In this document: piece by piece, positions 40,483 to 64,000 of the stretch | Position numbering within the stretch: the first letter of the stretch is position 1 | Layout of the letters: every line of letters begins with the position of its first letter | Translations under genes and position numbers: made by a program | Origin: Sporobolomyces roseus | Lineage: Eukaryota; Basidiomycota; Microbotryomycetes; Sporidiobolales; Sporidiobolaceae | Reading direction: 5' to 3' | DNA: 64,000 bases | Assembly: GCA_016617785.1 (NCBI GenBank) | Contig: JADILM010000001.1 | Span: 3,844,001 to 3,908,000 of the forward strand | The notes under the pieces: model-generated | What the model saw: the letters and a program-made list of their open reading frames with translations, nothing else | Databases searched by the model: none | What the model was told of the DNA's origin: nothing

Positions 40483-40922
40483 GCGAACCTCAGCAGAACC
40501 TCTTCGCCTCTTTCCTCTCCCTCGTCTTCCTCATCGACCTTGAAGTCTTCGCTCTTTCCTTCTTCGTGCTTATCTTTATGAAACCTTATCTTTATTCATG
40601 CCAGTCTGTCGCAATCGGAAGTCTCTCAATCTTCGGGTCCGAGAGGGTTGACTTTCGAGAGAGTCGCATTTTGAGGAACTGATTGCACTGAGATTTCGGA
40701 GAATAAACAGAGATATTTGGGGTAACACGACCAGCGTGTGGAGGGTACAGATGAGGATAGCTTGCAAAGATGCGAAGAAGGAGAAGGAGGCACGAAACGC
40801 TAGTTCTGCAGAAACTTCACTAGTGTTGACCCAGCCAGATTCTCGAAACAGCGACGGTCGTCTTGCATTGGAGCACTTCGTGAATTGAAGTGGGCTGTCG
40901 TACGCGCGAGGTGAGAGTGGAA
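40483..40922. other. convergent intergenic region
   Basis: About 440 bases between converging genes. It could hold a short terminal exon of the minus-strand family member P1 (a GTAAGA donor lies just before its terminal codons) but none could be fixed. Confidence 0.3.
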
Positions 40923-42946
40923 TCAGCGTTCGAGTTCTAGCTCAGAAAAAGAATGGAAAAGAAACGAAGACTCGATTCTTACCACTTCACCCGGGATTGG
41001 AAGTTCTTCAGTCTGACTCAGTCGTTGAAGATACTCAGAAACGATGTTGTGCGAGCCTGCAGAATTTGCGCACTCCAACAATAGTGCGTCGAGCGTCTTT
41101 CGAACCTGCGCACCCCAATCTCCTGTTGGGTCGAAGTTCTCGTATCTGTCGACAACTTGGTTCGCCAGCTCCTCCAGAGTGTCTGATGGCCTTGCTGGTC
41201 GCGTGAAGCTGAAGATTCCGGAAGCATTGACCGCTGATTGACGTCGAAGGTTGATAGGTCGAGTCGTCGAGGGTCGTCGAGCTTGCGAGTAGAGTGAGCT
41301 GATCGACGACGACGAAGGATGAGCAGGGTAGGGAGAGGCTGAGGGAGGTAGGGCGAACGGAGACGGTATTTCTTGAGAGAACGAATGAGAGAGGTGAGGC
41401 GAGAAGTTAGGAGAGAAGTTTGGGGACGAGTGGCCGAATTGTTGAACCTGATAGTTGGTGAGAGGTTGAGGGGCTGTACTGACACGTTGAAGAGGAGCGA
41501 AGGGAGGTTCGGCGAAGGCGGACGAATCGGAAGAGGAAAAGGAATGATTGCGATTCTGTGCGATGAACTGAGGAGAATGCAAGATTTGACCTGGAGTGAA
41601 GGACCCAGCGAGCCCATCTACTGACGACGCAGACTCGCGATGCTGGAGATGTCCTGCGAAGGAGTGAGAGCTTGAAGTCCTCCGAGGTTCGAGCGGAAAG
41701 TTTGGTAAAGAGTGAGTCGAAGATGCCAGGTGACTGAAGGTGGGAGAAGGTTCGGGCGAATCGAAGACTTGGGAAGTCGGCGAAGTACGAGCGTTTGGGA
41801 AGTCGGACGAAGGGAGGAACGTCAACGGGGCGAGATTTGAACGAGAGGAATTTTGCGAGAGAGAAGAATGTCGTTTCGATGGTCTCTCAGGCGTGTCCTC
41901 CTCCGCCTGTCTGCGTGAATGTGCGACGTGAGGACTGTCAGCTTGATGTGCGAGATTGGCTGTTTGTGGGAGTCTCCGTGCTTCGAATGCCGCTCTTTGA
42001 TCTCGCTGATCTGCCTCGAAAATAGAGGCGAGATCGATGCGACATAGATCCTTGAAGGTCAAGGCGTCTGGCTGCATGACATCCGAGCGTGAGCTCCAGA
42101 AGATTGTTCGGAAAAGAGGGACTCACTAAATAAGAATCAACCAGCAATTGTGCTGACACTCCCTCCTCTCGCCTCCGATCGTAGGTTCTGGAGACAGCAG
42201 CGTAACATGCACCCAGAAAGCTGATAACGGATACCTTCTCGTCCTGGATTTCGTCCATTTCGTCGACCAGAACTTTGATAGTTTCGAGCCATCGGTAGTA
42301 ACGAGCTTGTCGAGACTTGTCAGACGTCTCGTGAGCGACGTCGAGAGCGTCACGAGCCGTTTCCAACTTGGAGAAACCAGCGACTTGGAGGGATTTCAAG
42401 TGTTGCGATGAGTCTCCTTGATACTTTTGTAGGGCGATAGCGAGACTGTGAGCATTGCGAGCCGCAGACAGCTTGAGTATCTTCCTCTACGTTGAATGAA
42501 AGCTTGAGTCCCCGATATCGATCAACGTAACCGAGGAGAAGACTTACAGTCTGTTCCCGAAGCCACGAGTTCTTTTCGACGTAGGTTGGCCGCCTGATCA
42601 CAAATCCCATCGTACAGAGCTGCTCAATAGAAGGCTGAAGGGACGGATGAAATGAGCGAACTGTAGTTGAATCGAGGAAGCATTGACAACTTACGAACTT
42701 GGGATCGAAAATATCGGCTTTGAGCTTTTCAATTCTGGTACCGCCTAGGATCGCGAACGCATTTGCCCTCTGTTGGTCACTACACTTGGATTCCCACAAA
42801 TGACGCGTGACGTGAATTCTAAAATGCGAATTCCATGATCTTGCCGTCCAAACTCCGTTGTTGATTGTGTCCCATCCCCATCGTAGAGCGATGTTGTCAA
42901 TTCGATTGAGGAAATCTTGATAGGGGTAGTTGAGAGGTTTCGCCAT
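40923..42946 (-). CDS. unknown W-rich paralogous family, member P1
   Basis: One of four related genes in the window. From ATG 42946 the N-terminal module reads DFLNRIDNIALRWGWD and VWTARSWNSHF and ends at DPKF, where a phase-0 intron follows. Next comes a short exon with SIEQLCTMGFVIRR and NSWLREQT, then a second phase-0 intron. The middle module contains ARYYRWLETIKVLVDEM and VSVISFLGACYAAVSRTYDR, ending at SYL before a third intron. The last exon begins with FKDLCRIDLASIFEAD and then has a 230-residue Ser/Pro/Phe-rich insert (SPNFSPNFSPHLSHSF) absent from P3 and P4. It closes with a C-terminal module containing VVDRYENFDPTGDWG and VSEYLQRLSQTEELPIP. No known domain, signal peptide or membrane segment is seen. 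The true 3' end may lie in a small extra exon. Confidence 0.68.
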
Positions 42947-43396
42947 GATTCAGAGAAGAACTGAAGAGCAGGCAAGAAAAAGTGGGAAGAGAGTAAGTGA
43001 GAAATAGGAAAGAGAAAGACGAATTTACGCCGATTCGCATTCTCAGGAGGTGAGCTGAATAGAGCCGAGGATGAGCGATTGATGGGCGGAAAGATAGGAG
43101 GGACCGCGAGTAACGGTAAGAGACTTTTTCTCGGTAAGAGACTTTTCTCGGTAAGAGACTCTGATTCGCTCAGATCAAACAGAATTTTGTAGCGATTGCA
43201 CGAGGAAGTATAGATTTGAGTAGTAGTAGCAAGACGAAGGAGAGGCAGAAGGAAAGAGAGTTTGGTAACGTATATTGTTCGAAGATTGAGTTTTGCGACT
43301 GAATTCTGCGATTCTTGAAATCCTTAGAGCTTGCGGTAATCAGACGATGCTAGCATCTGTTCAAGTGTTTCGGGCTAAGGGTATTTAACGATATCG
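42947..43396. other. intergenic, promoter of family member P1
   Basis: About 450 bases between P1 (start at 42946) and the end of P2, both on minus. It contains a short tandem repeat (listed separately) about 170 bases upstream of the P1 start. No gene is seen. Confidence 0.4.
43115..43161. repeat. three-copy direct repeat (GGTAAGAGACT) upstream of P1
   Basis: GGTAAGAGACT occurs at 43115, 43133 and 43150, separated by TTTTTC-like spacers, a period of 17-18 bases. It lies upstream of the P1 start and could hold regulator sites. Confidence 0.75.
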
Positions 43397-44800
43397 TCAG
43401 AGATGTTCGAGAATCGGAAAAAACGAGTAGAGAAGACTGACCAAGACGTAAGGAAGCTGGTGTATCGTTCGACGCTCGAGTCGCCTCAGATAATCGACTA
43501 CCTTTTCATCTACTACGTTCCCACTCGTAGCTGCTTTGCGTAAGCTAGTCAGACGATCTCGAGCTTCATCCTCCGATTTTCGGTCCATTCTTCCGTAGAT
43601 TCGAGCGATCGCGTCGATGACTTTGATCATTGCCTCTGGAGTATCTTGACGCGAGACAGCGACATATGCGCTGTTTGTCGGGAGGTGCGCATGCGACGAA
43701 GAGGCGACAGGGTTGACCGAGGGGTGGAGAACCGAAGAATCCCCTCGTCGTTGATCATGACGGGAATCGACGGAAAACGCTGTTGAGGGCGCAGGAGGAG
43801 GCTGCGAGATAGACGGATGGCGCTTTGGAGGTCTCCCAGCTTCTTCGGCATCGTCTTCCTCCTCGCGAGGGCGGACCTCGCGAGCGTGTTGCTGAGCGCT
43901 CGAGGCAACAGCGTGTCCTCCTCCCTTGATCCCACAGTGGGTTCGGAAACTGTCCTCATTCGGCTATCCTCTCACCTCGTCTCAGCGATTGTTGCAAGAG
44001 AAAGGGAGAGTCAACGTACGAGATAAGAAGCGACGACGAGACTGGCTCGGATACCGACCTCCTCCTCACGATTGTAGGTCCTTCTGACGATATTGTAACA
44101 GGCTTGAAGGATGGCTACGATCCGTCTATGTTTCTGATCCTTTCCATGTTTGAATTCTTCGAGAGCGATTGACTGAATCGTCTCGCACCAAGTATTGTAA
44201 GGAAGCTCTTCCTCGGCTGGAATCGCGGGGTCAGAATGTTTGCGCGCGAACTTCAGCTTCTCGAGCACCCTGAGTAAAAGAGACTTGAGATCTGGGTTCG
44301 GCAGGCGGGAGAGGTTTCGCTCCTTGGTGGCGGCAATGCGTATGAGCTCCGTCCTCTGTTGCTGAGAATGTATGAGTCTAGTATGCCAATGCTGAAAGAA
44401 GGCAGTGTAGCTCACGGTCTGTCTTCGAAGCCATGAGATTTTCGAGTACTCTTCTTTCCCGAATAAACAGCCCAGGTCGACTACACGGTCAATGCTCGGC
44501 TAGCAAATAGAGGCTTGTCGTCAGTTCGTCCGGAAAAGGCGAGAGAGAAGCACTTACGAAGTATCTGTCGAAGATATCTGGAGCAAATGGGAGATTGGGA
44601 TCGAAGACTGAGAGTATCGTGTCCATTTGTGCTTGAGTGCAGGTTTTTAGGCGCGTCGCTGTGATGGTCTTCTTTGTGTAATTCAACCAATTTCTGGTTG
44701 CCCACAAGTCGTCATTGTGATCCCCCCAACCCCATCTGGTTGCGATTATCTCTAGTCGACTGTGCAAATCATCGAAGGCGAGATTTGCATATCCGGGCAT
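43397..44800 (-). CDS. unknown W-rich paralogous family, member P2
   Basis: Start ATG at 44800. The N-terminal module has DLHSRLEIIATRWGWG and LWATRNWLNY and ends at DRYF before a phase-0 intron. The next exon gives SIDRVVDLGCLF and ISWLRRQT, then another phase-0 intron. The middle module holds YNTWCETIQSIALEEFKHG, VAILQACYNIVRRTYNREEE and IRASLVVASYL. A Ser/Pro-rich linker with RPPKRHPSISQ resembles P1 (RPSKRHSSLSQ). The C-terminal module has IDAIARIYGRMDRKSEDEAR and VVDYLRRLERRTIHQLP. The tryptophan-glycine of the C-terminal module is missing here. It is tandem with P1, to which it is closest. Function unknown. The exact 3' end is uncertain because the last codons could be intronic. Confidence 0.66.
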
Positions 44801-45273
44801 TAAGGCTTAGTCGATGTTGGGCGAAAAGGACAAGAACGAAAGAAAGAGTGGATAGTTGATGAAGAGGTTCACGCCCGGCGGCCCAACCGCAAGTCGGAGA
44901 ATCGTGCTTTGACGTTGAGCTGGAACGTTCCTCCGGACCGGGAGCAAAGGAATAGAGAAACGGACGGACTGTCTCGGGATTAGACGAGACTTGAGCAATC
45001 GAAGAAAGTGGGTTGAAGATTCGAAGCTCCTGACGATATCGCTAATCGCAGAGAAGACGTGTGAGTTCGTAGATGAAGACCAAGAGCTCACCTTCATACC
45101 AGAGTCGAGGACGAGGAGAAGAATAGCGCAACCAATGATTCTCTCTTCTTTTCCGATGCTAGCATCTGATAACCTTCTTGATTCCCACTTTGTACACGTC
45201 TAAACCCATCAATCTACGAACCCCGCTTTCGATCATCGAATGCTTACCCACTTTTACCTCTAACGGAAAGATT
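44801..45273. other. intergenic, promoter of P2 and 3' end of GMH1
   Basis: About 470 bases between two minus-strand genes. Open frames on both strands (44807-45097, 44991-45203) show no similarity. Nothing else is seen. Confidence 0.35.
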
Positions 45274-46664
45274 TCATCGACCAAATAGACCTTCGAGAAC
45301 GACATGGCTCACGTTGAACCCTAGTAGACTGACGATGTAGAAGGCGAAGAGGAGTGCGACGGGGAAGAGGAGGAGTTCGGATCGGATTAGGAAAGGGAGA
45401 GCGTTGTAACCGAGATCTGCGAATCAACGAAGAGCAATGTCAATGAGGTTCAACTCGCAGCAAACTCGTCGAGACAGAGAAAAGCGATACGAACAAGTCA
45501 CATAAGCGTATTGAGTGAACTAGGAAAAACGAAATCCTGAATTAGTTCTCAAATCTCGGTTTTGAAGAGCAGGAAAGCGTACAGCAGCGAGGTACAGCGT
45601 GTTTCCGACCCAGAGACACACCCAATTACTTCTTGTTACGACGGGAGCGAGGACGAGTTGAGCGACGTAGAGGGTCAAGAAGAGAGGGAAGAAAGAATTG
45701 GCATGAACGTCGAATGCATAGGGCCTATCGGGGGAGGGCGTTCAATTCAGCGGGTAGTATGGAAGAGTCGCAGCGAGAGGGTGCGTACCACTCAACCTTC
45801 TGATCCGTCGCATGGGTATGACTCGCATGAGTAAGGTATTTGTTCGACAACGCCCTATTTATGGAGTTTGTGCGATACGAGTCAATTTGCGCTGCTACTA
45901 CAACCAGTAGATAAGGAGAAGATAAAGCGTACCATAGAGCTGTACTGATGATGAGACCGACTCCGAAGAATTGTATCACGATGAAAGAAAAGATTGTTTC
46001 GAAAGTTTTCGCAATTCCATGGTGAGCGTACAACACAGACCAGAGAATCGCTGCGACTGCATACCGAGAGAAATGCCAAGATCAGTATCGCGTCGTACGA
46101 TGAGTTCGCGAGATCCCTCGACGTACCGAGGAGGGAAAGGGAAATCAGGAGGAGAACAGCAGGATCGTCTCGAGCCCAAGTGTTTTTCGTTTCTGTGCGA
46201 AGGGTATATATCAGCCAGGATCTGGAGATAGGTCGAAAGGATTAGACATACGTTTGTGATAGTAGACGTTTCGATATCTTCGAAAGCGCAACTAAAATCA
46301 GCGAGTTGTCGAGTTATCGAACAGCACGAATAAGAACACTCACACTCGCCGCGGTGCAATACACAGATAACAAAGTTGCCAGATCGCCAATTCAAAGTCC
46401 TGTCGAAGTAAATTGACGAGCATGAGATTTGAGAAAGCGAGAATGAGAGAGGGAAAGCGAAACTCGCCATTTGTGGTAATCGACTCAATCTCCGTAGCCA
46501 AGTCTTCATTCCACCGTTCCCTAACCGAGGGAATCCATGTGCAGAGCTACAGGAGTACGAAGGAGGGTGAGCGAAAGTTCGGAATAAGAGGGGAAAGAGA
46601 AAGAGAGGACTCACTTGAGATTCGCAGTAGAGCTACCATTACGGCCTCTCGATGATGGCAGCAT
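45274..46664 (-). CDS. GMH1: UNC-50/GMH1 family Golgi membrane protein
   Basis: About nine exons. The ATG at 46664 gives MLPSSRGRNGSSTANL, which joins in phase to GMKTWLRRLSRLPQM. The next intron (46400-46467) has a GC donor and leads to DFELAIWQLCYLCIAPRRV. The family's hallmark blocks follow: VYRNVYYHKQTKNTWARDD, PAVLLLISLSLL, AILWSVLYAHHG, IQFFGVGLIISTALW, EWPYAFDVHANSFFPLFL and DLGYNALPFLIRSELLLFP. About five membrane segments are visible. UNC-50/Gmh1 proteins are Golgi inner-membrane proteins linked to the Arf guanine-exchange factor Gea1/2 and, in worms, to receptor trafficking. The end at 45274 assumes that the last GTGAGC after LLGFN is not used as a donor. The alternative upstream frame to 46908 lacks an ATG. 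Confidence 0.9.
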
Positions 46665-46939
46665 CTAGTTCAGAGCTTCGGGTCCTCTTCAGCGAGTGCA
46701 GGGAGTCGAGAGATTGAGCGAGGCGGGCGAAAGTCGATTTCGATGAGGAAGGAATGGATTGAACCAAGAGCGCTTCCGAGCTGATTGTAGGAATGTATAA
46801 AACTTGACTTAGAGGTCTACGGGAACAGGCGAGGTAATCGAGTTCGAAGTTGTTGTCGAAGAACGAATCCGAGTCGTCTCGCTTCTTGCGCTCTCCCACT
46901 TCACTCAAACTTCGACCGGAATAGAGTAGTCCACCAGAG

Positions 46940-49900
46940 ATGCATCAGGAAGACGAGCTCGACTTTGACGAAGATGATCTAGTACCTCAAGCCTTTGCAA
47001 TCCCTTCCTCTTCCTCATCTTCTTCCCTCCAATCTCGATCTCAGCCTCACCAAGCAGTACCTACAGCTCCCCTTACCACCACCACGATCAAAGCATCCAC
47101 TCCAGCTTCGACCAAACCTCCTTCTCACGATACTTCACTAGATTCACTCGGAAGAAAGTTACCTCAAGGATGGGTCTCACGCATGAGCAACACGACTGGA
47201 GAACTCTACTACCGCAACACAGTCAGTAATACGAGTAGCTGGGAGATCCCGACAACTCCCGCTGTCGAAATCAAGAACGATTCTCCCCCTCCTCCTTCTT
47301 CTCTTCCTCAAACTGCACCTCCCGCTTCGCAACCTATTGTCCAACACCAACAGCCATCGCAACAGGCGCAAACTACGGAAACGAGAACAGGAAGAGAGGT
47401 GGAACAGAGTTTGCCGAAGGGACCAAAGCTAGCGACTCATCCAGATACAGCGAAGCTCGTTCAGTCGATTCCGTCTACCTCTTCTTCAGGTGATTCAACC
47501 TCATCCTCAAACGAGTATCGCTCTATACTGACTCTATTGATCCTCGTATAGTCACTGCAGCACTTCCTACCGGTCCTCGAGCATCGACTCAAACAAATTC
47601 GAATCCGCCTCGACAACCTATGGCATCTACAGCTGCAGCAAGATACCCTCCTCGTGCAGCTACGTCAAGCACGTTGGCTCCGGCGGTTTCGCAATCACAA
47701 AAGTTGGAGACAAGTAATGGTGAGCTTTCGTCCTATCAACGAATTCAGTCGATCGTCTGCGCCTTCTAGAAACTCGGAACCGCTTGGAAGAACACCTCGA
47801 AGCTCCAGAGCTATCACTAGCTCGAGCCGAATCTTACCTCGCCTCGAGCCGTCCTCCTCGACCTCCTCCCTCCGTCGAGATTTGCCTCGAGAATCACTCA
47901 CAGCCTGTTCCTCACATCGTTCAATCGCTTACCTCTTTCCCTTTCCCTTTCCTTTGCCTCCTCTTACTCATCTTCGCCATCTCCCTACCTCGTCACCCAC
48001 TCCGTAACGCTCCTTCTCGCCCACTCTATTCCATCACTTCACACTTCGAAATCCTCCTTCCTCCCTTTCCCGAATCACAGAACCTTCCAAGTCTTCTACA
48101 TCGTCCAGTTCCACTTCTGCTGAGTTACCGAAAGGTCCAAGAGCTTCTATCGATCAACAACGTGAGTTTTTATGTTTCGAGGGGAAGAGATCTTGGAAAA
48201 AAGGGGTAGATGAGAGTATGGCTCGATTCAAACAACGGACTGATCCTAGTCAAAGCGAGAAGAAGGAAAGATAAGAGAGGCTCAAGTCGCATCGGGATTG
48301 AGGGAATTGGAACGAATGAAATGCTGGAGAGGCTTTCTTCGCCCGGCAAACACGCTCGCCTCGATTGATCACCCTTCGAACACACCGCTTACTCCTTACT
48401 TCGCTTCCCTCATTCTCCCTTCCCTTTCACCCCTCGCTCTCATCGCTCGACAACTCTCGCTTCTTTCTCACTCACTTCGACCTGTCCTCCGTATAATCTC
48501 CCATTTCCCTCATTTCCCCTAAACTTCATTCTTCAGGTCGTCAATCTATTCCATCTCAACCCTCAGCCGTACAGTCTTCCACCACTCGTTCTTCCCGTGA
48601 TCCGCCTTCCGGACCTGCTCCTCGAAACCCAAACCCAGCTCGATCTGTCAACTCCATTCCTGTCGCTCCTCGCAATCCTTCAGCCCCAACTGCTGCATCA
48701 GTCTCTACCGAGCCCACACATACATCAAGATCGATCGCAGATGAACGCAGGAGTTCAGTAGCCTCGGCAAGATCGAATGGAGAATCAGCTCGAGGGACCG
48801 CTGTGATTCGACCAGATCGGTATGCTTCCCTGTTACACGCCTCATACCGTTCTTCGCTTGAGCGAGGAAATCATCAGCTGACTCTCGTTCTCGCTATCTC
48901 CATAGTGATTCGACCAACCCTCGCGCTCTCTCTGTCGTCACTTCCCTCCCTCGAGGTCCTCGTCACGGACCTCGTCACTCTGCACCTATCCTCCCACCGT
49001 CAAAACCTCTCGCGACAGCCGACTCGAAGCGAAACGGAGACAGTTCGGAACAACGACGTTCTTCGATCAGTAATGGTTCATCGTCGAGGATCGTAGAGGA
49101 AGAAAGAAGATCTCGACCTTCACCTCTAGCTCGAGAAGATTCGAGTTCCCGACCTCGATCGAGAGATACCAGTCCTCGAGCACCGCAAGATCGAGAGTCG
49201 AGGGCTGGTGCTGGAGGAAGAAAGGAGGAGACTTCTTCGAGGAGAGTAGAGGACCTTGATCGAAGTTTGGACGATTACAATAGGGGAAGGGAGGGAAGAG
49301 ATAGCGAGAAGGGAGATAGGAGAGAAAGGGAGAGATCACCGGTTCGCAAAGAGGAAACTAGGAGGGAACGCTCGAGATCGAGGGATAGATATGCTAAGGC
49401 TTCAGAGAAACGGCGCTTAGATGAAGGGAAAGAGAGGGATTCGAGGAGAGGAGAACGGGATGAATACGTCGACAAGATGGATATCGACTCACTCTCTTCC
49501 TCTCGATCTCGACCCCTCCACGACGACTCGACTGCATCCAAGCGAGACCTTCCGCCTCACGTCGCTCTCCAACGAGTACCTTCATCATCGACCGCCGATT
49601 CTCACCGACCTCGTTCCCTTCGCGAGTTGTCGAAATCACCTCCTATTGCTCCTAGTCCAGCACAGAGGCAGAAGATGAGGGATGAGGCAAGGAAAGAACA
49701 ACAGAGAGGAGTGTCTATCGAAATCGGAGGAGGAGGAACGAGAGGTGAACGAAGTCGGAGGGAGGGATCGAGACCGGACAAGGATGCTGGTCGCTCGAGG
49801 GACTCGGACAGAAGCGATCGGGAGAGGGCAGCGAGGGCAGCAGAAGTCGAAAAGGAGAAGGAGAGGGTCAGGCTTAGAGCGCTCGATGATGCGAGGAATC

Positions 49901-50815
49901 GGGAACGTGACATGGTGGAACGTGAGAGGGCAAGAGGGAGCTATAGAGATGATAGAAGCGATAGGGATGAGGACAGATATCGTGACAGGGGAAGGGATCG
50001 ACGAGAAGTTTCGCCGCCATTACTCAGATTCGCTTCTTCGACGACACCTTTCCTACCACCTCCTTCTCCACCTCGAGCTTCCAGAACTCGTACTCGATCA
50101 CTCTCACCTCCCATTCCTCGTCCACCGGTCTCTTCAGTCGCACCATCAACGAGCAGTCGAGGAGGAGGGGGAGGCGTAAGAGGAGCGATTCACATCGAAA
50201 TCGGTGGAAACGCTATCGTCAAGACACCCGCAAGTTTCCGTGGCAAATACAGAGTACCGGATAGGGAGGAGATCTTGGGACACTCGATCGTACCTTTGAT
50301 GAGGATAGTCGGTACCGGATCAAACGGTCTCGATGATTTGGATGCGAGAGAAAGGCGAAGAGAACGATCTCCTCCTTTGGCATCTTATCGAGGGGAACGA
50401 TCTCGTGACGCGAGAGGAGGATCAAGATACGCCAGGAGTCGTTCACCGGTACGAGAACGTTCTCCAGTACGCTCAAAGGCCAGGTCACCAGTTCGGGAAT
50501 CGATCAATCGTTCGAGCGATCTCAGTTCAGCTCTTCCTCCCCGACCTGTGCGTATCGTTCTTTCGTTATCCACGGGTCTCTCGCTCTCGCAGGTGTACTG
50601 ACTCTCAAGTTCTCCTCGACGATTTCTAGACTGCTTCTTCACCAAAATCGACCACACCTTCCCTACTTTCTCGAATGTCTGGACTTCCCGAACGACCTGT
50701 CTCAGCCAGTCCAGCTATAAAGGACCGACCCTTATCGATCAACGGCGCTGCGAAGAGGATACGAGATCCCGAGGAGGTCATCAGAGAGGCGGAAATGAAG
50801 AAAAGACGAGGATGA
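46940..50815 (+). CDS. WW-domain protein with RS-like C-terminal region (probable pre-mRNA processing factor)
   Basis: Start ATG at 46940 (MHQEDELDFDEDDLVPQAF). Around residues 70-105 there is a WW domain: LPQGWVSRMSNTTGELYYRN and then TSSWEIP, with both signature Trp and the Tyr-Tyr pair. A Pro/Gln-rich region follows, then a chain of short exons with Ser/Arg/Pro-rich sequence and a long exon (about 48905-50550) with many RS, RE and RD dipeptides (RRERSRSRDRYAKASEKRR; RERSPVRSKARSPVR). A glycine-rich patch precedes IHIEIGGNAIVKTPASFRG. The terminal exon ends with IRDPEEVIREAEMKKRRG. WW plus RS composition is typical of spliceosome-associated factors. The structure between 47720 and 48540 is uncertain; one frame there (VDRLRLLETRNRLEEHL) would need an unusually short 29-nt intron. 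Confidence 0.7.
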
Positions 50816-51186
50816 TGAAAGCTCTTACGTAGCTCACATCGGTGAGAGTCGATTGTCGATGTGCATTGCAACTTACGCCATGTCATACAGACTTCTCGCT
50901 GCCTACTCCGAGTCGACTTTCGACGAAACTCTTCAAAACCGACTCGAGTCTCGGCTCTTCTCGCTACTCGCATTCTGCTAATCGCTTCGCAGAGCCACAC
51001 GATATAAAGCCCAGTCGAACGAGCCCGCAGGAAGTGATCATCTTTCTCGAGTCTCTAGCCGGTCGCCGCGGATCAATTCGGCCTCAAGAACCGCTTTGCT
51101 TTCTCTCTCTCTCCCTTCTCCTTCTTCACTTCACCTCAGCTCACGTTGCTTATCACAGCCTCGCCCTACCCTGCGCAGAGCTTCAC
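50816..51186. other. intergenic, promoter of family member P3
   Basis: About 370 bases between plus-strand genes. The frame of P3 is open upstream of 51187 but without similarity. The stretch before the ATG is pyrimidine-rich. Nothing else is seen. Confidence 0.35.
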
Positions 51187-52575
51187 ATGCCGAAACAACC
51201 TCGTTCTACAAAACGAGACCCTCAAATCTCGAACGGCGTCCGTCAAGTCCGTCCGCAACCTTACCACAACTTCACTGATGCTGTCGATCGCATGGTCGCA
51301 AATTGGGGAGGAGACGTTGAATATCAGCCTGGGTTCACCCCTCGGAGTTTCGGCAACAACCTAAAAGCCAGGATCACGGGGACAGTTTGGGACGTTCAAG
51401 TCCCGACTTTGCAAGCTGCGATCATCAAGATGATCCGTCTCGCAGAGCCCGACATCTATTCTGGAACTTTCGTACGTCTCGCATTTCACGACGCCTTGAC
51501 TGGTCTACCGAGCTGAACGGCATGGTCGTTTCAGCCATCTGTTGAGAGAATCGTAGTCAGAGGTCTTCGTAAGATGCCAAAGGGAGAACACCCTTCTTGG
51601 GTCAAACCTGTTGTTGTAAGCGAAACTTTCGATTTCGAGCTGAGCGCATATATCGGACTGAAACGACCACAACCGTAGATCCAGGATATCGCTAAACGCT
51701 CGCTTGATAGGATCAAACACATGGAGGACGCCAACTTCGAAAACAATCTCGAGAGCTGGTTCACACAGGTCAATCACACCGTTGAAGCGATGCACTCGCT
51801 ATTTCCGAACGATAACAACTACGGGCAATGGCTCGAGACGATGGAACGAATCGTCAATCAAAGCTACTACGAAATCGTTTACAAGATGCACAAAGGTTCA
51901 GACTTTCTCGGATACTTGGAGGGAACTCTCGAAGCTCTGCAACTACTCAGGAATGGATGGAAAAGTGAAAAGGGAGAGCCAATCAAAGTTCCTCGCAATA
52001 TAGTGAGTCTCTATCACGTGCGTCCATTTCCCTCCTTGCCGTCTGTTTCCTCCTCGCAGCCTGACCTTCATCTGTTGGCTAGCCGAGCGTCTACGATTTC
52101 ATGAAAATGGTCGGCATTGCACCAGCTGCTTCGTGTATTCACAAGGAACTAACGGACGAGAAGAGATGGAACACATTCAAAGCGGGAAATCGTAACGCGG
52201 TGAGACCCGTCGTACTTCGTCGTTACCACGCTGTAGAAACGTTGTCTCGGCCAGGTCTTTCAAATGAGCTGGTCAAACTTATTGAAGCCGTGGCGGAGAA
52301 GTACAAAGAGTTCTTCGCGGATTGGGGATATAACGTAGGCGATCGTCTTCGCTGGCTATACCATGATGTTCGACAAAACGGAGGCTACGAGCTGATGAGG
52401 CGGTACTTGCAAGAGCTCCTCTCAACCGGAAATACCTATCTCCCTTCGCCCGAGCATATCGTGAGCAGTTTCTTTCTGAACATCTGCGTTCCTCAAAGGC
52501 TGACCACCTCGACCTGAATTTGGATTGCAGATCTCTACTGTAGCTCAGCTACGTGCTTACTCTTCCGTTTATTAG
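51187..52575 (+). CDS. unknown W-rich paralogous family, member P3
   Basis: Start ATG at 51187 (MPKQPRSTKRDPQISNG). N-terminal module: NFTDAVDRMVANWGGDVEYQ, FTPRSFGNNLKARI, ending at YSGTF with a phase-0 intron. Second exon: SVERIVVRGLRKM and HPSWVKPVV, then a phase-0 intron. Middle module: TVEAMHSLFPNDNNYGQWLE, TMERIVNQSYYEIVYKM, ending SLYH before the third conserved intron. C-terminal module: VYDFMKMVGIAPAASCIHKE, LIEAVAEKYKEFFADWGYN, YELMRRYLQELLSTG and LPSPEHI, then a final short exon with ISTVAQLRAYSSVY and TAG at 52573-52575. P3 lacks the large linker of P1. It is tandem with P4. The module order and the three intron sites match the other members. No known domain; function unknown. Confidence 0.7.
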
Positions 52576-52951
52576 TTTGACCTCCCCTCCCCTCTTGCTT
52601 GATAAAGTATTGTCCTTCGTCGTTTTGTCTATTACCGATCGTCAATTTTCGACTCTTTCTGTTTATACCGGTTCTACTTTGCTTATCGATATCGCGAGAC
52701 TCATAGTTGAGTAATCGGGGAAAGGAATCGAGAGCTTTCAGAGCGCTGAGTGCCGCGGTTTCTACACTCTGCTCCGTTATCCACGAAACTCAGACGGAAC
52801 GAGCGATCGTGCAAAAGCTCTCCTCCTTTCCCTACTTCTCTCTTCTACGCTACTATCATTCCGACTCATCGTGTTCGACGCTACCCCGACTTAAGCATAG
52901 GAACACGTTAACAACGGCACATCCAAACCTTGAAAGTCGAAACCTCGAATC
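52576..52951. other. intergenic between P3 and P4
   Basis: About 375 bases with the 3' end of P3 and the promoter of P4. A short stretch at 52628-52690 is AT-rich. Nothing else is seen. Confidence 0.35.
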
Positions 52952-54483
52952 ATGCCCTGGCCACTCGCCTCATCCCTTCCCTCTCAAAATCCAAGTCTTC
53001 ACACCTTTCAGAGTGGCGACCGCTTGGAACCAGGAGCGCATTTGACATACCAGTCTTTCTTGAACGCCGTCAAAGAATTGGTCGAATATTGGGGACCGGA
53101 TAGAGAATTTGAGCCGGGCTGGACTCCTCGTGAATTGGCAGAAGACATCACACGAAGATTCACAGAGGATCTCTGGAATCGTCAGGACGATCCCTTCCGA
53201 ACTCGCGTTCTCGAGCTTTTGAACGTTCGTTCAGCTTCGCACGACATCTACTCTCCTAACTTCGTACGTTCTCACCCGAGCTTCGCTAGCGTCCGACACT
53301 GTTCTCACTTCTTTCCTTCACCCTTGCACAGCCCTGCTTCGAGCTTTTTGCCGCCAAAGGCATGCGTCGAAGAAGCAACGAAACAATCAATTCGCCTTGG
53401 CTCAGGGCGCAGGTGGTAAGCAACGCTGCTACGCCGCCTCTCAGGGTCAAACAGCTGATGTCTCCCTACCAGGTGAAAGATATCTCAGGAGTACGCTTCT
53501 GGACAAACCTTGACAAAATCAGGCCCGCCGCACTCGCTTCGAACTTTGAGCTTTCACTCGAATTATTGGACCGCTTCTTCAGAGCACTTTCAGCCCTATT
53601 CGGCAAGTACCAAGAATATCAACAATGGGTAAAAAAGATGGATTTGGCGCTATACAGGAACTGGTATCGGATCTTTTTCGAAGAGAAGAAAAGCGAGGTG
53701 GTCTTCGCGACCATGAAGGGTTGTCTCGAGGTCTTGGAGCTGATTAAATCGCGATCAAAGGGAAGCTATGGACCAGGGAAGATGCTTGCATACTACCACG
53801 TACGTTTCCGCACTTTTCCCATGCGAGCTTTTCGATTCGAAACCATTTTCCAGCTCACTAAGACTTCTGTTCTGTCGCAGCCGACCCTCGAAGGCTTCTT
53901 CAAGATGTGCGGTCTCCTCCCTACCCAAAGCTATGTCCAGAAAGAGCTCGAAGACGTCGACAATTGGCATCGCTTCTCAGTTCGAAATCGAGAATCTGCG
54001 CAACCTCCCGTGTTCAAAGACTCGAATCGTCCTTCGCATCGGCAGCCGCCCAATGCTACGGATTGGAGGCAGCTCTCGATTCTCGTACTCACAGTAGCTC
54101 AGAGGTATCGAGCTGATTATGGAGACTGGGGACACTTTGTCGGGAATCAACTCAACGTTCTCGTTGAAGAGTCGAAGTCTTCCGGTGACGACCAGAGCTA
54201 CCACACTCTTGACCACTACTTGCGAGAGCTCCTAGCTTGTCGCGTATCCGAGCTTCCCTCACCGCAAAAGATCGTAAGTATCCTTGATTGCGTTTTCTTC
54301 GATCTCGAAGCTGACTCGACCTCCTCGTCGCTGGATCACTCAGCCTCCTGCGATATGGGAGATCGGCGTGCCTCCTTACATTGTGCCGCGCGTAATCTAG
54401 CCTTCCCTGTGTCTTTCGCTCCCTCCCTTGTCAAGAAATGCGTAATATACGTTACAACACACCCTTCCAAACGTACGAGATGA
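52952..54483 (+). CDS. unknown W-rich paralogous family, member P4
   Basis: Start ATG at 52952. N-terminal module: SFLNAVKELVEYWGPDREFE, GWTPRELAEDITRRFTEDLW, ending at YSPNF with a phase-0 intron. Second exon: CFELFAAKGMRRRSN and SPWLRAQV, then a phase-0 intron. Middle module: FFRALSALFGKYQEYQQWVK, KMDLALYRNWYRIFFEEKK, ending AYYH before the third shared intron. C-terminal module: LEGFFKMCGLLPTQSYVQKE, VAQRYRADYGDWGHFVGNQL, LDHYLRELLACRVSELPSP and QKI. A final intron donor (GTAAGT at about 54275) follows the last conserved codon as in P3, but its acceptor is not clear, so the end given is where the unspliced frame stops. Closest to P3. Function unknown. Confidence 0.66.
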
Positions 54484-55082: not shown

Positions 55083-55189
55083 GCTTTGCTTTGCTTTTGA
55101 TCGCGTGAGTGAGGAAGTGGAGGTAAAAGAGAGGAGAGGAAACTTCTTTTTGGTTCCCGACACTTCACTTTGACAGCTGAGACTCGACT
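55083..55189. promoter_or_regulatory. 107-bp divergent promoter of FMC1 and ATP11
   Basis: The whole distance between the two start codons is 107 bases. It must drive both F1-ATPase assembly genes. No canonical TATA element is clear. Confidence 0.6.
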
Positions 55190-56382
55190 ATGATCACTCG
55201 AGCATTGAGAATAGCTGGTATTCCCCTCCTTCGACCTTCACCTCGGCTCATCTCGACTACCTCAACCCTTCGAAACGCTTCACCGGAATGGGAGTCTCTC
55301 ATCGGAGGTAGAGCAGGAGTAGAACGTAAACGACAGCTATTCGAACAAAAGTATCAACACGTACTGGAAAAGAAAGCGAAAGAACAAGGATTGACAGTCG
55401 AACAATTGAAGGAAAAGGCGGCAGGGTTATTGAAAGCGAAAGAAGCGGTCAAGAGGGCAGAGAACTTGAGTAAGAAGGGTCCAGTAGAAGCTGGGAGTGT
55501 CGATACGAGGAAGGAAGGCGAAGGGGAGAAGGGCAATGTCACGAAACCTCTGCCATCGTCTCAAAAAGGACCGTCACAAGCGAAACCTGCTTACAAGAAG
55601 GGGGAAAGCCCTGTCAAAGTACGTTCATTCACCTCCTCATATAGCTCGGAAGACCTCGGCTGACGACTTGGACTCTCTGACAGCCCTTACACGAGATCAT
55701 GGACTTGTCAAAAGTACACGATTTGAACTCTTCTGCACTCTCGACCCTCTGGACGACTTACCATCAAGCGAAAGGGTTCCTCTCAGCCGCGATCCCGACA
55801 GAGACTTACCTGAAGATGATCTCGAGCGCGAGGAAGTACCCTCTGTTCATTCTGCCATTGCAGAGGGACGTCGTTGGAGAAGCGCCAGATGGAACTCAAA
55901 CACCTCAAGCTGTCGAAATGCATGTACTCGTGAGCTCAACATCCTCCCCATTTGACTACCATTCTTCCCTCGACGCGACTAATCGTGTATTTCAATCTCG
56001 TTAGAATTGGGCACTCTTACCTCCTCCTTCCAATATCACTGAACCCGTTCCTCCCCCTTCCACCGTCCTCTTCACCCCTCTCGCCGAATACAAATCTCGA
56101 CAAGAATACGCTCAACCCTACCTAATCCTTACCCACTACACCGACCTCTCTTCTTCCCACAACGTCGTCCTCATGCGTGGAGAAATCACGCCAAACGTTT
56201 CCCTCAACGATACGGAAGCTCAAATCCTCGCGATCAGGATGCAATTGTTCTATCACGATAAAGGGAACGGGAGTAAGATGGAGGAGGAGAGGAAAGAGTT
56301 GTTGAGGATTTTTCATATGGAACCGGATAAATTCGAGTGGGAGAGATTGATCAAAGCTGGTGAGATTACAGAGACCAAGTAA
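55190..56382 (+). CDS. ATP11: mitochondrial F1-ATPase assembly chaperone ATP11
   Basis: Three exons. Exon 1 starts with a mitochondrial presequence (MITRALRIAGIPLLRPSPRL) and a Lys-rich coiled coil (KAKEQGLTVEQLKEKAAGLL). Exon 2 carries SALSTLWTTYHQAKGFLSA and AIPTETYLKMISSARKYPLF, then FILPLQRD. Exon 3 carries NWALLPPPSNITEP, YLILTHYTDLSSSHNVVLMR and GEITPNVSLNDTEAQILAIR, ending RLIKAGEITETK. These blocks are diagnostic of the ATP11/ATPAF1 family. Atp11 binds the F1 beta subunit in the matrix and prevents its aggregation before assembly into the hexamer. Head-to-head with FMC1. Confidence 0.94.
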
Positions 56383-61911: not shown

Positions 61912-64000
61912 TTATCTCCCTTTCCCCTTCTTCTTCTTTCCTTTCTTCTTTACCACCTTGACCCCACTACTAACCGCCAACCCTTCAACCGCTTCCTCCG
62001 ATTGTTGTCGACGAGGTTCCGCTTCTTCTTCTGCCTGAACAATCCTTTCTTCCTCTTTCGGTGGTTCAGCTTTTCCACCTCTATCCTTGTCTTCCTCCTT
62101 CTGCTTCTGCTGTAGAGCTCTCGCTTCTCGTTCCCCTAATACGCTCAACCAATTCTCCCCGACTTCTTCCCTCAATTTCTCAATCTTCCTTCTCAACGCT
62201 TCACCACCTCCTCCTCCTTCACCTCCAGAAGAAGTCGCTTCTCCGTGTCCTCCTCCTAGTAGCGCTTCATAGGTCGATGCAGAAACTCGTTCGCGACGAC
62301 TATTGATTCTTGATTTCGTAGGAGAGGTCGAAGGTCCGAGGGAAGCGAAGTCGTTCCGAGCTGGAGAGATGCGAGTGTGGGAAGGGGAAGAAGCGAACTT
62401 CTGATGATGAGAAGAAGGTTGTTTCCTTGGTGTAGTAGGAGCGGTCGAGTTGCTCGAACTTGAAACTGGTTCTTGAACCGTTGCGAGCGAAGTAGTCGCT
62501 CGTTTTCCTCCGTCTGGACCTGAAGAAGTCGTTGTCGCATCCGAGTCTGACTGTTGTTGAGTCGAGGAGGAAGCGACTGGTGGTATTCCTCCAGAGAGAG
62601 GTGCATCGAGATCAACAATTCTTTTCGGTTTCCTCCGTCTGGCAGGTTTCGAAGGTGACAGAGGGCGAGGAGGACCTCCAAGAACCGGCGAGGTCGATAG
62701 AGAGCCTGGTGGGGATGCTTCATATGCAGTTGAAGAGCGTTGCCGAGAAGATTGAGCCGACATGGGAGCGGTAACGACTCTCCTCCTAGGTTCGACGACA
62801 ACTTTCTTTGGTGCAACTCCCATTCCCAATCCCGCTCCATTTGAAGTTTCACCTTGCGTCGAACCGAATCCGGTACTAGCTCTCCTCCTCATCGTACGAC
62901 TCGGTAAGAATGCCCCTCCAGATCGTTTCGCAACTTCGGCTTCGACCGCTTTCCTTTCCGTTCTCCCCTCGATCCATCTCCCATCAATCCTGACTCCTTC
63001 CTCTTCCGTTTCTGCCGGATCACCCTTCAATAATCTCTCCTCATCAAAGTAAGCGAGACATTTGATCCTCCATCCTTCTTCACCTCCTTCCTCCTTCAAC
63101 CGAGCAAAGGGATTCTCCTTGATCCAAACTTCCCTCAAATTCGGCAACCTAGCCAACCTCGATACTTCCAACGCCTCGTAGATCCTGTTCCCTCTCAAGT
63201 CGAGTCGTTCCAAAGCCAGTAATCGATCCAGACCAGAAAGGTTCTCAAGTCGATTTTGCGAGAGGTTGAGAACTTCGATCGCACCGAGAATGGTTGGGAG
63301 GGAATGAAGGTTATCGATCATGTTATCGCGGAGATTTAGGGATCGAAGGGAAGTGAGGGTTGATAAAGCGGGAGGAACCGAGATGAGTAGATTCGAGGAG
63401 AGGTCGAGGGAAGTGAGCATGGGTAAATGGGAGAGTGGAGGTGCGGGGAGGAAGGTGAGGGAGTTGTCATGTAATGATAAGTGTCGTAAGGAAGACCAAG
63501 CGAGTTTTGAGGGACTGGGATAAGAATCGTTCGAAAGAATCCCTATCGAATGGTTTGATGCGTCGTCCAATTGACCAGAACTTGTTGAACCTTCCGTCCT
63601 TTTCCTCCTACCTTCTCCTACCGTCTCATTCGCTGATCCTTCCTGAGCTCGTTTCCTCTTACTTCGCGCCTCATCCTCGACGACACAATCACAAATCAAT
63701 TCTCCGACATCCTCGATTCCTCCTCGAACTACTTCCAGTTTCTTCAGTTGAATCGAAAGGACGTCCCATCCTGCGAATGCTCGTGGATCGAGATCTTGTA
63801 GGTACAGTGAAGTGAGCGAGTGGAACAGGGAAAGAGGAACGCAAGTTGAAGGGGGAGGACAATCTTCGAACCCTTCTACTGCTTGACTCGGTGGTCGAGA
63901 GATCGAAGGTGTTTGACTTTGTGAAGAGGGAGAGAAGATGAAAGGGGAGAGTTTGAGTGCTGGTAACTTTGTACATGAAGAATAGATGTGTCGAACGTGA
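61912..64000 (-). CDS. leucine-rich-repeat protein (5' end outside the window)
   Basis: The minus-strand frame is open from the stop at 61912 to about 63980, with no convincing start, so the gene continues beyond the window. The first visible part has SLFHSLTSLYLQDLDPRAFA and LKKLEVVRGGIEDVGELICD. Six LRRs follow (residues are relative to the visible part): LRHLSLHDNSLTFLPA, LTSLDLSSNLLISVP, LRSLNLRDNMIDNLHSL, IEVLNLSQNRLENLSGL, LERLDLRGNRIYEAL and LREVWIKENPFARL, with an LRR-cap like end. A long Ser/Pro/Arg-rich region and a charged coiled coil (ALRRKIEKLREEVGENWLSV) end in a lysine-rich tail (KKKGKKKKGKGR). The layout is that of cytosolic LRR scaffold proteins (for example STK11IP- or nischarin-like); that is inference. 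Confidence 0.75.
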   Translation of the reverse strand, partial: HVRHIYSSCTKLPALKLSPFIFSPSSQSQTPSISRPPSQAVEGFEDCPPPSTCVPLSLFHSLTSLYLQDLDPRAFAGWDVLSIQLKKLEVVRGGIEDVGELICDCVVEDEARSKRKRAQEGSANETVGEGRRKRTEGSTSSGQLDDASNHSIGILSNDSYPSPSKLAWSSLRHLSLHDNSLTFLPAPPLSHLPMLTSLDLSSNLLISVPPALSTLTSLRSLNLRDNMIDNLHSLPTILGAIEVLNLSQNRLENLSGLDRLLALERLDLRGNRIYEALEVSRLARLPNLREVWIKENPFARLKEEGGEEGWRIKCLAYFDEERLLKGDPAETEEEGVRIDGRWIEGRTERKAVEAEVAKRSGGAFLPSRTMRRRASTGFGSTQGETSNGAGLGMGVAPKKVVVEPRRRVVTAPMSAQSSRQRSSTAYEASPPGSLSTSPVLGGPPRPLSPSKPARRRKPKRIVDLDAPLSGGIPPVASSSTQQQSDSDATTTSSGPDGGKRATTSLATVQEPVSSSSNSTAPTTPRKQPSSHHQKFASSPSHTRISPARNDFASLGPSTSPTKSRINSRRERVSASTYEALLGGGHGEATSSGGEGGGGGEALRRKIEKLREEVGENWLSVLGEREARALQQKQKEEDKDRGGKAEPPKEEERIVQAEEEAEPRRQQSEEAVEGLAVSSGVKVVKKKGKKKKGKGR

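What the first reader, a model, noticed from the sequence alone, without database searches (positions are those of the whole stretch)
40923..54483. Four-member unknown gene family with shared modules and three conserved intron sites
Genes at 40923-42946, 43397-44800 (minus), 51187-52575 and 52952-54483 (plus) share one plan. An N-terminal module has (A/V/L)xxWG, then (W/F)TxR or WxAR, and stops at a Phe. A short exon has S(I/V)(E/D)...G and SWLRxQ (SWVKPV in P3). A middle module is centred on YxxW(L/C/V)(E/K)x(I/M). A C-terminal module has (Y)xxxxDWGxxV and YL(R/Q)xL. In all four a phase-0 intron follows that Phe, another follows the SWLRxQ exon, and a third follows Y(H/L). Sequence identity is otherwise low, so intron sites and Trp motifs are the evidence of common descent. 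I know no family with this plan; a lineage-specific expansion of unknown function is likely.
Basis: partly seen in the sequence, partly recalled or inferred. Interest (0 to 1): 0.85.

Follow-up and report, generated by a model that had tools for sequence, protein, structure and literature searches.

The report
Hypervariable orphan gene cassettes in fungus
Four neighbouring genes in a fungus belong to a larger, unidentified family whose members have become almost unrecognisably different, in one pair between nearly identical flanking DNA, a pattern best known from genes that let fungi tell self from non-self.

Summary
P1-P4 are homologous (BLASTP P3-P4 3e-51, P1-P2 1e-25, P1-P3 5e-5) and share five exons with FOUR, not three, phase-0 introns. 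In BLASTP alignments 29 of 30 intron sites coincide exactly. The genome holds at least ten gene units, six on contig C1 and four on C7. No library tried identifies them.

Two findings go further. P7/P8 lie in an inverted duplication with flanks 96.8% and 89.9% identical, yet the ~2 kb holding the gene drops to 0.22-0.57 DNA identity: an idiomorph-like island. P5/P6 show the same break on the upstream side only. And relatives of P3 and P4 differ mainly in the N-terminus: all 11 P0003/P0004 differences fall in codons 4-49; P3/P0005 is 27/63, then 30/30 identical.

Best reading: intracellular, helical, multi-module proteins under diversifying selection, most likely partner-specific self/non-self recognition (0.33, inferred). 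Plain fast evolution and killer meiotic drive are the main rivals. P1-P4 carry no homeodomain, and no member lies on the contig of the STE3 or homeobox match.

The parts
40820..42946 (-). P1, 620 aa, five exons; exon 4 carries a long Ser/Pro-rich insert with ..RPSKRHSS..
43324..44800 (-). P2, 413 aa, five exons; paralogue of P1 (31% over 245 aa, E 1e-25)
51187..52575 (+). P3, 375 aa, five exons
52952..54400 (+). P4, 390 aa, five exons; paralogue of P3 (29% over 356 aa, E 3e-51)
51187..51471 (+). P3 exon 1 (N module); its 5' part is the variable stretch relative to P0005 (27/63 identical before TVWDVQ, 30/30 from there to the exon end)
52952..53263 (+). P4 exon 1 (N module); the 11 differences between its relatives P0003 and P0004 lie in codons 4-49
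53473..53799 (+). P4 exon 3 (middle module, three helices predicted at low confidence, pLDDT about 46-64 by block)
53881..54273 (+). P4 exon 4; its second half is a predicted three-helix bundle (pLDDT 77-91 by block)
42548..42946 (-). P1 exon 1-intron 1-exon 2, open in one frame; used for the N-module model (residues 11-70 at pLDDT 67-83 by block, most of the rest below 50)

Best explanation
A family of at least ten gene units for intracellular, helical proteins with three helical modules (exon 1, exon 3, second half of exon 4). At least one pair persists as old, very different versions between homologous flanks, and P3 and P4 change fastest in the N-terminal module. I infer that they encode partner-specific self/non-self recognition: the variable N module decides which other version or partner is bound, and the conserved remainder transmits the outcome (incompatibility, or licensing after cell fusion). 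Shown: homology, shared introns in six members, paralogues, flank/core contrast, clustering of differences. Inferred: three-module fold (only the C-terminal bundle is modelled with confidence), dimerisation, location in the cell, recognition.
For: Family and introns. Ten units: P1-P4; P5 C1:4482978-4484553(+) and P6 C1:4498699-4497245(-); P7 C7:1305900(+) and P8 near C7:1292400(-); P10 and P9, C7:1193.9-1196.1 kb(+), reading as fused. Flanks: P7/P8 upstream 96.8% over 1338 bp, downstream 89.9% over 2192 bp; P5/P6 upstream 92.1% over 3738 bp. In 150-column windows P7/P8 is 0.86-1.00 upstream (9 windows), 0.22-0.57 over the gene (15), 0.76-1.00 downstream (14); 9 of the 23 flank windows are 0.99 or more. 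P5/P6 is 0.67-0.97 upstream (12 windows), 0.27-0.57 in the 17 that follow. P7 and P8 are 40% identical in the N module. The DNA search found 3 copies of the C7 downstream flank, and all 3 adjoin a family member; a TatD-type gene lies in or partly in that flank. N-terminal hot spot: P0003/P0004 11 differences in 155, span permutation p 1.5e-5; P3/P0005 Fisher p 2e-7 and P4/P0001 12 of 24 differences in the first 65 of 267 residues, p 0.005, both with cut points chosen after seeing the alignment. Exon 4 of P1, P2, P5 and P6 (4 of 6) has a basic KRH patch (read).
Against: No population data: relatives are single translated fragments of unknown strain, so allele versus sister species is open. A two-sided island is shown for one pair only, P7/P8, and P8 is probably decayed (in-frame stops). 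For P5/P6 identity does not resume downstream within the loci fetched, so there the duplication may simply end. The window's own genes show no DNA-level repeat of themselves or of the other loci. The P4/P0001 exon-versus-intron contrast is not significant (p 0.147). P1/P0007 shows no exon excess (3 of 88 versus 2 of 44), P5/P0008 is identical over 97 residues, P6/P0002 is 96 of 99, P6/P0006 has 13 of 95 in the exon versus 2 of 28 beyond it, not tested. The family is not on the contig of the STE3 match (C11) or the Homeobox_KN match (C8). P5 has one stretch at the usual membrane cut-off (1.69; the cut-off is recalled). P9 has a frame break in exon 3 (by eye).
Confidence: 0.33

Rival explanations
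1. An ordinary fast-evolving family: old local paralogues with weak constraint, whose flanks happen to be kept alike by gene conversion of neighbouring genes. No recognition role.
For: Decayed or fused copies; three of the four genomic clusters form their own clades in a tree of nine units (P1+P2 100/99, P3+P4 95/92, P7+P8+P10 100/99; P5/P6 unresolved); conversion would stop where the cores no longer match; a two-sided island is seen in one pair only.
Against: Intron sites in register and open frames in P1-P6 argue against loss of constraint; differences between close relatives are clustered in P3 and P4.
Confidence: 0.32
2. Killer meiotic drivers (poison-antidote genes, like wtf of Schizosaccharomyces in dynamics): a selfish, multi-exon, fast-diverging family in which each gene protects only against its own product.
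For: Multi-exon family with decayed and fused copies, strong divergence at a conserved locus. In passages of PMC9562144 the Wtf4 antidote is encoded on exons 1-6 and the poison on exons 2-6, and in five pairs sharing 13-76% identity antidotes did not neutralise non-cognate poisons.
Against: No clear membrane segments; one borderline stretch, in P5 (that wtf proteins are membrane proteins is recalled). No evidence of two transcripts.
Confidence: 0.2
3. Host- or environment-facing effector proteins diversifying in an arms race.
For: Localised change in P3/P4 and tandem copies.
Against: N-termini look hydrophilic with no obvious signal peptide (read; hydropathy; no dedicated predictor run).
Confidence: 0.08
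4. The inverted duplications are assembly artefacts joining two haplotypes, so P5/P6 and P7/P8 are two alleles of one locus each.
For: Inverted arms about 10-17 kb apart in one contig; I had no reads to check.
Against: Within the loci fetched the C7 arms are short and bounded, and a third copy of the C7 downstream flank lies about 89 kb away at 87%. If true, the cores would be idiomorph-like alleles, which would strengthen the recognition reading.
Confidence: 0.07

Closest known systems
Basidiomycete HD mating-type genes (SXI1/SXI2, bE/bW)
   Same: Alleles with a highly dissimilar N-terminal region (PMC2873909, passages seen: dissimilar region at the N-terminal parts of Sxi1 and Sxi2; at least six alleles in seven strains).
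   Different: No homeodomain found in P1-P4; the Homeobox_KN match is on C8 and STE3 on C11, the family on C1 and C7; a family at several loci.
wtf killer meiotic drivers of Schizosaccharomyces
   Same: Multi-exon, strongly diverging, multi-copy family (PMC9562144, passages seen).
   Different: No clear transmembrane segments (membrane nature of wtf recalled). Not compared with wtf sequences directly.
Fungal heterokaryon-incompatibility loci (HET/NLR; het-B of Podospora)
   Same: Pseudo-allelic genes at one locus deciding self and non-self (PMC10890737, search listing and start of abstract only).
   Different: No Pfam family at E<=1 in P1-P4, so no HET or NACHT domain seen.
MAT idiomorphs of ascomycetes
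   Same: Dissimilar gene blocks between homologous flanks (recalled).
   Different: Here dissimilar versions coexist in one genome and their proteins are still detectably homologous.

Membership tests
HD mating-type genes | homeodomain | tested here: not met
   Pfam hmmscan of P1-P4, 0 families at E<=1 in 4 of 4; P5-P10 scanned at exon level only, and only in part
HD mating-type genes | location at the HD or STE3 locus | tested here: not met
   STE3 match on C11, Homeobox_KN match on C8; family on C1 and C7. Contigs may belong to one chromosome; other homeobox families were not searched
HD mating-type genes | multi-allelic with variable N-terminus | tested here: inconclusive
   pattern seen for P3/P0005 and P0003/P0004; strains unknown
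wtf meiotic drivers | multi-pass transmembrane protein (recalled) | tested here: not met
   hydropathy scan of P1-P6: highest 19-residue mean 0.49-0.97 in five and 1.69 (one borderline stretch) in P5
wtf meiotic drivers | alternative short and long transcripts encoding poison and antidote | not testable with these tools
   no RNA data
HET/NLR incompatibility genes | HET or NACHT domain | tested here: not met
   0 families for P1-P4
Secreted effectors | N-terminal signal peptide | tested here: inconclusive
   hydropathy only; no dedicated predictor
Any fold solved in the PDB | matching fold | tested here: inconclusive
Fungal orphan families in proteome databases | homologues in other fungal proteomes | not testable with these tools
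   no fungal proteome collection held; some searches returned 8 proteins, all fragments close to a known member; one search scored only the 7993 candidates sharing most words

The most novel reading that the evidence does not exclude
A new kind of fungal non-self recognition system: an orphan multi-module helical protein family kept as ancient, idiomorph-like alternative cassettes at several loci, with specificity set by a hypervariable N module, working apart from the pheromone-receptor and homeodomain loci.
Probability: 0.25. Interest if true: 0.87.

Novelty: new variant of a known kind. Interest (0 to 1): 0.61.

Why it matters
If true, it adds an unrecognised protein family to the short list of fungal recognition or drive systems, and it can be tested directly: conserved flanks allow PCR of the variable core from many strains. 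Even without a function, a gene pair with near-saturated divergence between flanks that are in places 99-100% identical is a striking case for studying gene conversion, balancing selection and cassette exchange.

Tried and rejected
Known families: Pfam on P1-P4 (none at E<=1); NCBIfam and PADLOC on P1-P4 (each hit in 1 of 4 members, best NarP 0.12 and DrmMII 0.014, not taken as real); Pfam on exon-level alignments at E<=10 (every hit in one member only, best 0.014); PDB sequences (best E 0.13, 1.7, 0.11, 0.15, unrelated proteins). Internal threefold repeat: hhalign of the three modules gave E 0.04, 0.32 and 0.28 for single comparisons, suggestive only at the exon 1/2 versus exon 3/4 junction; not claimed as shown. 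Structure: model of P4 exons 2-4 with introns 2 and 3 read through, mean pLDDT 52.6, pTM 0.30; P1 N module with intron 1 read through, 55.1, pTM 0.49; only the C-terminal bundle is confident. In the VIA second look no family stood out. Linkage to the STE3 or Homeobox_KN match rejected by contig. DNA-level repeats among the window's genes: none at E<=1e-4 in 36001-58000. Literature: listings showed no paper that I recognised as describing this family; two searches sought comparison systems; I read passages of three papers. The organism was not identified; a STE3-type receptor and short introns fit a fungus. Weak genome hits at C1:2894831, C7:629375, C4:438629, C1:532868, C12:217376 and C1:1139215 were not followed.
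Full report
What is there. The four genes are real and homologous. Joining exons at GT..AG junctions gives proteins of 620, 413, 375 and 390 aa, each with five exons and four phase-0 introns. BLASTP aligns P3-P4 at 3e-51, P1-P2 at 1e-25, P1-P3 at 5e-5 and P1-P4 at 5e-4. In alignments at E<=1e-3 (11 of 15 pairs among P1-P6), 29 of 30 intron positions fall exactly together. I chose some junctions with the family in view, intron 2 of P2 and P4 above all; leaving intron 2 out, the count is 20 of 20. Exon 2 and exon 4 start with proline in 6 of 6 genes and exon 5 in 5 of 6.

A larger family. Searching the 22.4-Mb genome with single proteins found P5 and P6 about 0.6 Mb away on the same contig, both with the same five exons. 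P5 and P6 found P7, and P6 found P8, on contig C7; P7 found P9 and P10 there. These four were modelled by eye only. P10 runs without a stop from the start of its exon 4 into a second N module, that of P9; P9 has a frame break in exon 3, and P8 has stops in its C-terminal frame. So at least ten gene units exist, some decayed or fused. A tree of nine of the ten (P9 left out) groups P1+P2 (100/99), P3+P4 (95/92) and P7+P8+P10 (100/99), and leaves P5 and P6 unresolved, though these two are each other's best BLASTP match (3e-36).

Divergence islands. P7 and P8 point away from each other and have like flanks on both sides: 1338 bp at 96.8% upstream and 2192 bp at 89.9% downstream. In 150-column windows identity is 0.86-1.00 in the 9 upstream windows, 0.22-0.57 in the 15 over the gene and 0.76-1.00 in the 14 downstream; in the N module the proteins are 40% identical. 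P5 and P6 point at each other just inside an inverted repeat of 3738 bp at 92.1% that ends 259 and 223 bp before their start codons; identity is 0.67-0.97 in 12 flank windows and 0.27-0.57 in the 17 that follow, and does not resume downstream within the loci fetched, so this is a one-sided break and may be the duplication's own end. P9's downstream flank is 86.6% and 81.5% like those of P8 and P7, while upstream likeness is short or weak. The DNA search found three copies of that downstream flank, all beside a family member, the third about 89 kb from the nearest other. It holds a TatD-type gene, whose Pfam-matched stretch (L062 2252-2782) lies inside the part shared with the third copy and half inside the part shared with P7's. 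Genes as unlike as P7 and P8 cannot have diverged since such similar flanks did, at one rate. Either flanks are homogenised while cores are too unlike to convert, or old versions were exchanged between homologous flanks. I saw no reads, so an assembly artefact is not excluded.

N-terminal hot spot. Three protein searches returned eight fragments, from sources labelled jgi, ena and lgn (the last I take to be Logan). P0003 and P0004, both close to P4, differ at 11 of 155 positions, all within codons 4-49, while the rest of exon 1 and the read-through beyond it are identical (permutation p 1.5e-5). P0005 matches P3 at 27 of 63 positions before TVWDVQ, then 30 of 30 to the exon end and 10 of 14 in the read-through intron (Fisher p 2e-7, cut point chosen after looking). 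P4 versus P0001 has 12 of its 24 differences in the first 65 of 267 residues (p 0.005, cut also chosen after looking), and intron 3 read through is identical over 27 codons, but exon versus intron is not significant (p 0.147). Against this, P1/P0007 shows no exon excess (3 of 88 versus 2 of 44), P5/P0008 is identical over 97 residues, P6/P0002 is 96 of 99, and P6/P0006 has 13 of 95 versus 2 of 28, not tested. So the hot spot is shown for P3 and P4 only.

Structure and place in the cell. The C-terminal module is predicted as a three-helix bundle (pLDDT 77-91 by block), the middle module as three long helices at low confidence (46-64), the N module as helices at 67-83. No clear membrane stretch in P1-P6; one borderline value, 1.69, in P5. 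KRH-type basic patches occur in exon 4 of P1, P2, P5 and P6 (read). No library identified the proteins, and Foldseek found nothing at E<=0.001.

How it most likely works. Old alternative versions between homologous flanks, fastest change in one module, a conserved remainder and several loci resemble recognition systems more than housekeeping. In Cryptococcus heveanensis the homeodomain mating genes show a highly dissimilar region at their N-terminal parts (PMC2873909, passages). I therefore propose partner-specific recognition through the N module, at 0.33. This is not membership in the homeodomain system: no homeodomain was found in P1-P4, and the STE3 and Homeobox_KN matches are on other contigs. 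Plain fast evolution with converted flanks is nearly as likely on present evidence, and killer meiotic drive fits the dynamics (PMC9562144, passages).

Noticed in passing
window 53290-54480: P4 exons 2, 3 and 4 stay open in one frame through introns 2 (57 nt) and 3 (81 nt), and P1 exon 1-intron 1-exon 2 is likewise open; intron retention could give longer isoforms. This is not general: most introns of the other genes shift the frame or hold a stop.
   Followed up: partly
window 45520-45741, 46925-47548, 55181-55660, 61915-63999: Neighbouring genes by Pfam: UNC-50, a WW-domain protein between the two gene pairs, ATP11 beside P4, a leucine-rich-repeat protein.
   Followed up: partly
L080 (C7:1193.9-1196.1 kb): P10 and P9 read as one fused gene in which the C-terminal module of the first is replaced by the N module of the second; P9 has a frame break in exon 3 (by eye).
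   Followed up: partly
L062 (near C7:1291.2 kb): P8 shows in-frame stop codons in its C-terminal module and is probably decayed (by eye).
   Followed up: partly
G000 C11:266514-267497 and C8:1184252-1184374: One STE3 receptor gene and one Homeobox_KN match, on different contigs.
   Followed up: no
L038:1-3720 and L039:4923-8633: The duplicated flank of P5/P6 carries an F-box-like gene and a weak lysine methyltransferase match just below Pfam's cut-off.
   Followed up: no
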